Source of the DNA: Methanoculleus formosensis
GTDB taxonomy: Archaea; Halobacteriota; Methanomicrobia; Methanomicrobiales; Methanoculleaceae
Direction of reading: 5' to 3'
Length of the DNA: 64,000 nucleotides
Assembly: GCF_025384765.1 (NCBI RefSeq)
Contig: NZ_VHLL01000006.1
Coordinates: 62,001-126,000 of the forward strand
The notes under the pieces are model-generated. The model was not told the origin of the DNA and searched no databases. It saw only the letters and a program-made list of their open reading frames with translations. Shown here one piece after another: positions 47,325 to 49,316 of this stretch (positions are counted from its first letter, which is position 1; every line of letters begins with the position of its first letter). The translations under genes were made by a program, and so were the position numbers.

Positions 47325-47735
47325 GTGAGAAGCGAACTTGAAGAGGAGATCGCGAAACTCTCCTCCCTCGCCCGGGAGCGCGGCGCGGAGGCACGGCGGA
47401 TAGCGGCCCGCGATGTCGTCGTTGCGGAATGGGTGCGGTTCAAGTGCCGGTTCGGGTGCAAGGGCTACGGAAAACACATGTCCTGCCCGCCCTACGCCCC
47501 CACCCCCGCCGAGACCGGGCGGCTGCTCACCGAGTACAGCACCGCCCTCCTCCTGCGGTTCGAGGGCGTTCCGGGGCATCCCGACCTCAAACCCGACGAG
47601 ATACCCCTCGACTTCCACCCGTTCCTTCGCGACCTCATCCTCTGGGTGAACTCGACGGTGCACCTCCTCGAGAAGACGGCTTTCTACGACGATTTCCCGA
47701 AGGCCTTCGGGTTCGGGGGATACCCCTGCATCTAC
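47325..47735 (+). pseudogene. DUF2284 metal-binding protein, 5' part, interrupted by a TnpB element
   Basis: The first 137 codons of a DUF2284 gene: SLARERGAEARRI, then the metal-binding CRFGCKGYGKHMSCPPYAPT, and at the break GGYPCIY. Reading on into the inserted DNA gives a stop at 47748. GTG 47325 has GAGGTGA upstream. The reading frame resumes exactly at 49080, so the gene was intact before insertion. Function of DUF2284 is unknown. Confidence 0.85.
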
Positions 47736-49079
47736 CCTCCGCGGGGTTGAAGGAGCGGAACTTGAGCACCGGAGGTGCGACTGGCAGAGCGGGAGGGCTC
47801 CCTCCGCACGGGGAGGTGAACGCGGCACCCCAACGTCTGTTCACTTTCGCCCCGTGCGGCTCTTCTTTATGCTGGAGGAGACTCCATACGACAGTATCGT
47901 ATGCTGCGGCGGTACCAGTACCGGCTCTATCCCACGAGGGATCAGGAAGTCCTGATCGCCAAGCATCTCGGATGCTGCCGGTATGTGTACAACTGGGCGC
48001 TCGACCGCAAGAATCTGGCATATCACGACGACGGGATCAGCCTGTCCGGGTACGACCTCATGAAGCAGCTTCCCGCCCTCAAAGCGGAGTTGCCCTGGTT
48101 GAAGGAAGTCAACGCCCAGTCGTTGCAGCAATCGATCCATCACCTTTCCCGTGCGTTCACGAGCTTTTTCGAGGGGCGCGCCGACGAGCCGACCTTCAAG
48201 AAGAAGCACGCCCCCGAACAGGCGTTCACGGTGCCGCAGTCGTATACCGTGGACTTCGAGCAGGGAACGGTAAAACTCCCGAAGATCGGTGCGATCAAAA
48301 CCGTCTTCCACCGCCGGTTCGAAGGCAGGATGAAGACTGCGACGATCATCTGCAGATCGACCGGGCGATACCTGATCAGCATCGTGGTCGAGGACGGCAG
48401 GAAGCCCCCGCACCCTGCCGATCCGATCCCGGACCAGACTGTTGGGATCGACCTGGGGCTCACGCACTACGCCGTTCTCTCGACCGGGGAGAAGGTGGCG
48501 AATCCGAACTATCTCAAGAACACGCAAACGCGGTTAGCCGTGCTCCAGCGCCGGCTCGACCGCAAGCAGAAGGGTTCCAAGAACCGTGGCAAGGCCCGGC
48601 TCAAGGTTGCCCGGTGTCACCAGAAGATTGCCGACCAACGGCGGGACTTCCAGCACCAGCTCTCTTCTCGACTGGTCCGCGAAAACCAAGCACTGGCCGT
48701 GGAGTCCTTGAACGTGGACGGCATGGTGAAGAACCATTCTCTCGCGGGAGCAATCAGCGACGCCGGGTGGGGTTCTTTTGTCTCGATGCTGGCATACAAG
48801 TGTCAGGAAGCCGGGAAAACCCTGCTGAAGATCGGGATGTTCGAGCCCTCATCAAAGACCTGTTCGGTCTGCGGATACTGGAAGACCGATCTGACACTGA
48901 AGGACCGGGAGTGGGCCTGCCCCGAATGCGGCACGCACCACGACCGGGACTTGAACGCCGCGATTAATATCAAACAGTTTGCACTTGCAGGCGCGGAACG
49001 CGCCGAAGAGCCTGTGGACTCGCTCCCAATAGGGAGGAGGATGAAGCAGGAAGCCCCCGCGCAAGCGGGGGTAGTTCAC
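47736..49079 (+). mobile_element. TnpB-only IS200/IS605-family element
   Basis: A 1344-base insertion defined by the split DUF2284 gene: codon TAC before it and codon TGC after it join in frame. There are no inverted terminal repeats or target duplication, as expected for this family. Subterminal hairpins are present: GCACC GGA GGTGC at 47766-47778 near the left end and CCCCCGC GCAA GCGGGGG at 49054-49071 near the right end, followed by TAGTTCAC. No tnpA is present, so movement would need a transposase from elsewhere. The left flank TCTAC is the likely target motif. Confidence 0.85.
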
Positions 49080-49316
49080 TGCGAGCACCTGCACTGTGTC
49101 GCCGAGGAGCACAAGGGGGTCGTCGACGAGAGCATCCGCAGGCTCTGCAGGCATATGGACCTCGTCCGCCCGACGATGGAGGGTGCCGGGATTGGCGTCT
49201 TCTCCACCGCCCGGAAGGCCGGGTGGGACCTGCACGTCGTCCCCTGCCGCGACTTCGAGTACGGGAAGATCGAGCACGGCAACATCACGTCGGTCGGCCT
49301 CGTCCTCATCGAGTAA
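47901..49316 (+). CDS. tnpB: TnpB RNA-guided nuclease, reading through into the DUF2284 3' part
   Basis: A TnpB (OrfB) protein starting MLRRYQYRLYPTRDQEVL. The RuvC catalytic residues are present: Asp in VGIDLGLTHYAVL, Glu in LAVESLNVDGMV and Asp in HDRDLNAAINI. The zinc ribbon is CSVCGYWKTD and CPECG. There is no stop codon before the element ends at 49079 (393 codons), so the open frame continues for 78 codons of DUF2284 to 49316, giving a 471 aa fusion. All nuclease elements look intact. The guide RNA would come from the overlapping 3' end of this gene and the right end. Confidence 0.88.
   Translation: MLRRYQYRLYPTRDQEVLIAKHLGCCRYVYNWALDRKNLAYHDDGISLSGYDLMKQLPALKAELPWLKEVNAQSLQQSIHHLSRAFTSFFEGRADEPTFKKKHAPEQAFTVPQSYTVDFEQGTVKLPKIGAIKTVFHRRFEGRMKTATIICRSTGRYLISIVVEDGRKPPHPADPIPDQTVGIDLGLTHYAVLSTGEKVANPNYLKNTQTRLAVLQRRLDRKQKGSKNRGKARLKVARCHQKIADQRRDFQHQLSSRLVRENQALAVESLNVDGMVKNHSLAGAISDAGWGSFVSMLAYKCQEAGKTLLKIGMFEPSSKTCSVCGYWKTDLTLKDREWACPECGTHHDRDLNAAINIKQFALAGAERAEEPVDSLPIGRRMKQEAPAQAGVVHCEHLHCVAEEHKGVVDESIRRLCRHMDLVRPTMEGAGIGVFSTARKAGWDLHVVPCRDFEYGKIEHGNITSVGLVLIE
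48930..49099 (+). ncRNA. predicted omega RNA of TnpB, with guide
   Basis: By analogy with characterised TnpB elements, the scaffold is transcribed from the 3' end of tnpB and the right end, and the guide is the flanking host sequence. Here the right-end GCAA-capped hairpin is at 49054-49071 and the guide would begin at 49080 (TGCGAGCACCTG). The 5' limit is only an estimate. This is inference from family knowledge; no transcript evidence exists here. Confidence 0.5.
49080..49316 (+). pseudogene. DUF2284 metal-binding protein, 3' part
   Basis: The C-terminal 78 residues of the split gene: CEHLHCVAEEHKGVVDESIR, then CRHMDLVRPTMEGAGIGVFS and a final TSVGLVLIE, all typical of the DUF2284 C-terminus including conserved Cys residues. 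It is in frame with the TnpB gene upstream. Confidence 0.82.

What the first reader, a model, noticed from the sequence alone, without database searches (positions are those of the whole stretch)
47325..49316. TnpB-only element precisely splits a DUF2284 gene; target motif and guide can be read off
The flanking half-genes join in frame at TAC|TGC, so the element is 47736-49079. All three RuvC acidic residues and the zinc ribbon of TnpB are intact. In characterised TnpB elements the motif 5' of the left end (here TCTAC) acts as the target-adjacent motif, and the flank 3' of the right end (here TGCGAGCACCTG from 49080) is the guide. The predicted RNA would then recognise exactly the empty DUF2284 allele, which fits homing of an element that has no transposase of its own.
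Basis: partly seen in the sequence, partly recalled or inferred. Interest (0 to 1): 0.75.

Follow-up and report, generated by a model that had tools for sequence, protein, structure and literature searches.

The report
TnpB-only element homing between archaea
A small selfish DNA element that carries only an RNA-guided DNA cutter (TnpB) sits inside a metal-binding-protein gene of a methane-producing archaeon, and comparison with relatives suggests that it reached exactly that spot independently in two species, as an RNA-guided homing element would.

Summary
Confirmed: 47736-49079 is a TnpB-only IS200/IS605-type element precisely inserted in a DUF2284 gene of a Methanoculleus-like genome. The uninterrupted site occurs in about 27 relatives. 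About 20 sister copies carry a T(C/T)TA(C/T)-like motif at the left border and end in GTAGTTCAC; empty sites of four of them confirm precise borders. RuvC residues D184, E268, D350 and the zinc ribbon are present, and the 3' terminal hairpin covaries, so the right flank is the expected guide.
New here: a second species (UBA430) has the element at the same nucleotide. The elements are 98.5% identical, the flanks 82-91%, with identity jumping at the borders. The two species are not sisters, and many species between them have the empty site. Two further TnpB sites in the genus show the same signature; two others look vertically inherited. Three of the four cross-species tnpB pairs at 98% identity or more share a site. 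No Y1 transposase was found in the genome. This is comparative, not experimental, evidence for RNA-guided homing between species. The tnpB frame has lost its stop and runs into the DUF2284 3' half. TnpB homing is a known mechanism; the element is a new member of a known kind.

The parts
47325..47735 (+). 5' part of the split DUF2284 gene (137 codons)
   Evidence: Pfam PF10050 positions 2-103; joins in frame with 49080-49316
47731..47735 (+). Target-adjacent motif TCTAC at the left border
   Evidence: Same kind of motif at about 20 other copies and in empty alleles
47736..49079 (+). The whole TnpB-only element (1344 bp)
   Evidence: Ends shared with other copies; empty site in about 27 relatives
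47736..47900 (+). Left end, non-coding; 165/165 identical in UBA430
47754..47782 (+). REP-like stretch within the left end, absent from the other family copies except that of UBA430
   Evidence: Similar sequences scattered and in a 45-bp tandem array in other Methanoculleus genomes; left-end comparison
47901..49079 (+). tnpB coding part inside the element (393 codons, no stop); D184, E268, D350
48861..48932 (+). Zinc ribbon of TnpB (CSVCG ... CPECG)
   Evidence: Pfam PF07282
48975..49079 (+). Predicted guide-RNA (reRNA) scaffold; its 5' end is not determined
   Evidence: Conserved right end with covariation in 76 copies; fold z-score -4.08 for 48960-49099
49054..49071 (+). Terminal hairpin CCCCCGC-GCAA-GCGGGGG, one pair shorter than in relatives, which moves the stop out of frame
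49072..49079 (+). Invariant right tip TAGTTCAC
49080..49099 (+). Predicted guide TGCGAGCACCTGCACTGTGT (length inferred from characterised TnpBs)
   Evidence: First 17 nt identical in many empty alleles
49080..49316 (+). 3' part of the split DUF2284 gene; also the C-terminal 78 codons of the open tnpB frame
   Evidence: Pfam PF10050 positions 105-161 in the run-on frame

Best explanation
This is a TnpB-only (IS1341-type, IS200/IS605 superfamily) element. Its tnpB transcript probably ends in an RNA whose 3' tail is copied from the flank, so TnpB should cut any DUF2284 allele that still reads TCTAC followed by TGCGAGCACCTGCACTG. Repair of the cut from an element-bearing copy would install the element. 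Shown here: exact insertion, shared motif and ends, conserved hairpin, intact active-site residues, no Y1 transposase found in the genome, and a nearly identical element at the same nucleotide in a non-sister species with far more divergent flanks. Inferred: that the guide RNA is made, that TnpB cuts, and that at least one of the two arrivals was cut-and-repair homing after DNA passed between species.
For: Empty site in about 27 relatives. Motif and ends in about 20 copies and empty sites at four more loci. Element 98.5% identical (left non-coding 165/165; tnpB dS 0.044) against flanks of 82-91% (DUF2284 dS 0.36, upstream gene dS 0.25), the change falling at the element borders over 16 kb. G000 and G018 are not sisters in DUF2284 or rpoA1 trees (0% of bootstrap trees; AU p 0.036 and 0.037), with empty-site species between them. 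dN/dS 0.14 between the two joined DUF2284 genes suggests that both were intact for most of their history. The same signature at two more sites: L215/L218 (99.9% against 91-92%, with G004, the sister of G005, empty) and L212/L214 (99.4% against about 94-95%). Sites where element and flanks diverge alike (L012/L064, L194/L203) show that these elements are not slow-evolving in general. Three of four cross-species tnpB pairs at 98% or more share a site. No Y1_Tnp hit in G000.
Against: No RNA, cleavage or mobility data. The tnpB frame lacks its normal stop in both genomes, and the UBA430 hairpin loop is inverted, so present activity is uncertain. The AU tests are only moderately strong. G018 is a metagenome assembly. 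Only three sites, found after looking. One near-identical pair lies at different sites, so transposition or other transfer also happens.
Confidence: 0.7

Rival explanations
1. Passive homologous recombination: a donor fragment carrying the element recombined into the second species through the flanks, with no nuclease action.
For: Needs only ordinary gene transfer and repair; flanks are about 89% identical.
Against: Exchange would have to end within 21 bp on the left and 33 bp on the right of the element; no other window in 16 kb reaches element-like identity over comparable length; the pattern recurs at other TnpB sites.
Confidence: 0.14
2. Independent transposition: a Y1 TnpA acting in trans inserted near-identical copies at the same motif in two species, with no role for the guide.
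For: The family has clearly moved among many sites; G018 carries two Y1 transposases.
Against: About 5,300 TCTAC sites per genome, scaled from the window, make one coincidence improbable and three more so; no Y1 transposase found in G000.
Confidence: 0.07
3. Single old insertion inherited vertically, with the element strongly constrained and the flanks evolving faster.
For: tnpB dN/dS is low (0.005/0.044).
Against: Synonymous and non-coding sites are also nearly unchanged; related elements at L012/L064 and L194/L203 diverge like their flanks; many intervening species would each need an exact loss; the interrupted gene shows no decay.
Confidence: 0.04
4. Assembly chimera in UBA430: the element of a co-occurring strain was joined to UBA430 flanks.
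For: UBA430 is a metagenome-assembled genome; the identical stretches at the junctions are only 21 and 33 bp.
Against: The UBA430 element has its own differences, including in the hairpin; there is no second, intact DUF2284 in G018; the signature recurs in other genome pairs, one with the single-contig genome G004.
Confidence: 0.05

Closest known systems
ISDra2 TnpB and its reRNA (Karvelis 2021, PMC8612924; PDB 8bf8, 8exa, 8h1j)
   Same: Nearest natural protein with a solved structure (E 3.5e-69); same RuvC triad and zinc ribbon; motif at the left end and guide after the right end
   Different: ISDra2 carries TnpA; here there is none. Motif TCTAC instead of TTGAT (the latter from own knowledge). 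The tnpB frame lacks a stop inside the element
Sulfolobus islandicus TnpBs, including solo tnpB elements (PMC10640517)
   Same: Archaeal; solo tnpB; predicted motif TTTAT, close to T(C/T)TA(C/T); hairpins at the right end
   Different: The tested SisTnpB1 uses TTTAA; no cross-species same-site comparison in the text read
TnpB as homing or gene-drive agent (Mears 2025, PMC11870625; transposon retention by Meers 2023, own knowledge)
   Same: Cut of the empty site, then repair copies the element
   Different: Those are engineered bacterial or plasmid assays; here the evidence is natural, chromosomal, archaeal and between species, but only comparative
Homing endonuclease introns and inteins (for example PMC3229294)
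   Same: Same-site occupancy in non-sister species, element younger than its flanks, conserved coding target
   Different: RNA-guided cutter; no splicing, so the host gene is broken

Membership tests
TnpB RNA-guided nuclease family | TnpB domains and score | tested here: met
   Pfam domains over cut-off; NCBIfam guided_TnpB 352.9 bits against cut-off 100
TnpB RNA-guided nuclease family | RuvC catalytic triad D-E-D and zinc ribbon | tested here: met
   D184, E268, D350, CSVCG, CPECG
TnpB RNA-guided nuclease family | RNA-guided DNA cleavage | not testable with these tools
   Needs biochemistry
IS200/IS605-type TnpB-only element (IS1341-like) | tnpB without tnpA inside the element | tested here: met
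   Only tnpB between the borders; no Y1_Tnp found in the genome
IS200/IS605-type TnpB-only element (IS1341-like) | Precise insertion without target duplication, 3' of a short fixed motif | tested here: met
IS200/IS605-type TnpB-only element (IS1341-like) | NCBIfam IS200_TnpB exception cut-off | tested here: inconclusive
   422.4 bits against cut-off 425
TnpB guide RNA (reRNA / omega RNA) | Conserved structured right end followed by a variable guide | tested here: met
   Hairpin with compensatory changes in 76 copies, variable sequence after TTCAC
TnpB guide RNA (reRNA / omega RNA) | Transcript detected | not testable with these tools
   No RNA data
RAGATH-18 RNA (IS607 TnpB guide RNA) | Rfam gathering score | tested here: not met
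   25.4 bits against 44.9
Homing element (mechanistic class) | Near-identical element at the same site in lineages whose flanks are far more divergent | tested here: met
Homing element (mechanistic class) | Nuclease-dependent conversion of the empty allele | not testable with these tools
   Needs a mobility assay

The most novel reading that the evidence does not exclude
TnpB-only elements in Methanoculleus behave as free-standing RNA-guided homing elements: without a transposase in the same genome they pass between species into the exact site recorded in their guide, which would help to explain why solo tnpB genes are so common.
Probability: 0.6. Interest if true: 0.75.

Novelty: new member of a known kind. 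Interest (0 to 1): 0.6.

Why it matters
TnpB homing rests mainly on engineered assays. Here nature appears to have run the experiment: same site, near-identical element, divergent flanks and empty relatives, at up to three loci in one archaeal genus, with vertically inherited sites as controls. If confirmed, it explains how tnpB genes persist without a transposase and supplies matched sets of element, guide, target and motif for testing archaeal TnpB.

Tried and rejected
That the true left end is 47783 (most copies align only from there): rejected, because the left tip C(T/C)CTGCGGGG-like sequence and motif are present in the other copies and 47754-47782 is an extra REP-like stretch. Rfam: only a sub-threshold RAGATH-18 match on the plus strand; Sernc389 on the minus strand is also below its threshold. 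Viral contigs: only 35-48% identical TnpBs, so no viral carrier was identified. A functional TnpB-DUF2284 fusion: considered, but G018 reads on in another frame, so the fusion looks accidental. A recombined patch at 48365-48580 holding 13 of the 16 tnpB substitutions upstream of the hairpin: no single donor copy emerged. Literature searches returned no report of natural cross-species TnpB homing, but the library lacks most subscription papers.

Full report
The window lies in a Methanoculleus-like genome (G000, 99.17% complete; named relatives). The two DUF2284 halves join in frame into an intact 215-aa protein, and the uninterrupted sequence is found in about 27 relatives. G000 and G018 have no other DUF2284 copy. 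The element is the only full copy of its kind in its genome, although more distant TnpBs are present.

Ends and motif. About 20 related copies (79-86% identical, in other Methanoculleus genomes) share the left tip (CTCTGCGGGG-like) and the right end GTAGTTCAC. The motif at the left border is TCTAC in most, and TCTAT, TTTAC, TTTAT or GTTAC in others, with CCTAT in one divergent copy. The joined flanks of four of these copies match uninterrupted sites in other species, so borders and motif are real. All five coding insertions examined (DUF2284 and these four) fall after an in-phase TAC codon in the sense direction; codon bias in a GC-rich genome can account for the phase.

Protein and RNA. D184, E268, D350 and the zinc ribbon are present, and the nearest natural protein of solved structure is ISDra2 TnpB. 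The right end forms a conserved terminal hairpin with compensatory changes among 76 copies, and the 140-nt region around the right end folds better than its shuffles (z -4.08). Expression and processing are inferred from characterised TnpBs (PMC8612924, PMC10278001, PMC10640517).

Stop codon. In relatives the tnpB frame ends at the TAG inside GGTAGTTCAC. Here the hairpin stem is one pair shorter, which shifts the frame, so tnpB continues in frame through the DUF2284 3' half (471 aa). In UBA430 an extra T and a loop TTGC (the reverse complement of GCAA) lead to another frame and a 408-aa product. Whether either protein is active is unknown.

Homing signature. UBA430 (G018) has the element at the same nucleotide. 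Over 16 kb the two genomes are about 85-91% identical, but 98.5% across the element, with the change at its borders. tnpB dS is 0.044, against 0.36 for DUF2284 and 0.25 for the upstream gene. DUF2284 and rpoA1 trees separate the two species (AU p 0.036 and 0.037), and many species between them have the empty site. The low dN/dS (0.14) of the joined DUF2284 genes argues that the disruption is recent in both. Both disrupted alleles carry T at guide position 18, where most empty relatives have C; this is compatible with a short co-converted tract, but it is one base.

Genus-wide look. Among 108 tnpB loci in 28 genomes, five sites are shared between species by both flanks. Three show elements more alike than their flanks: DUF2284; L215/L218 (99.9% against 91-92%, with G004, the sister of G005, empty); and L212/L214 (99.4% against about 94-95%), whereas G005 at that same site is as diverged as its flanks. 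Two look vertical: L012/L064 (86% against 86-87%) and L194/L203 (95.2% against 95-98%). Of the cross-species tnpB pairs at 98% or more, three of four share a site. These cases were found after looking; they are a lead for a designed survey, not a significance test.

No Y1 transposase family hit was found in G000, so the element is not only without its own transposase but, as far as this assembly shows, without any of that family to move it. Passive recombination is the rival hardest to exclude without an experiment; independent transposition, constraint and assembly chimera are weighed above.

Compared with what is known: by sequence this is a member of the TnpB family and of the TnpB-only IS200/IS605-type elements. 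RNA-guided homing by TnpB is an established idea (PMC11870625 and work cited there). What is added is natural, comparative evidence for its action between archaeal species.

Noticed in passing
47754-47782; G007:C1:1923569-1923965: A REP-like sequence within the left end recurs in many Methanoculleus genomes, including a 45-bp-period tandem array in G007.
   Followed up: partly
49050-49079 and L004 right end: The loop of the terminal hairpin is inverted between G000 (GCAA) and UBA430 (TTGC); TTCA and TGAA loops also alternate among other copies, as if hairpin flips recur.
   Followed up: no
L026 (G032), L027 (G010): At the L012/L064 site two species keep only the element ends, with tnpB deleted but the hairpin and guide junction retained.
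   Followed up: partly
L181 (G001) and L182 (G018): A 98.9% identical tnpB pair in different genera at different sites, the one near-identical cross-species pair that does not share a site.
   Followed up: no
48365-48580: 13 of the 16 tnpB substitutions upstream of the hairpin between G000 and UBA430 cluster in 216 bp.
   Followed up: partly
L006, L063, L011, L066 insertion sites: These copies interrupt a P-type ATPase-like, a radical-SAM-like, a regulator-like and a peroxiredoxin-like gene (names judged from the translations), all in sense orientation after an in-phase TAC codon.
   Followed up: partly
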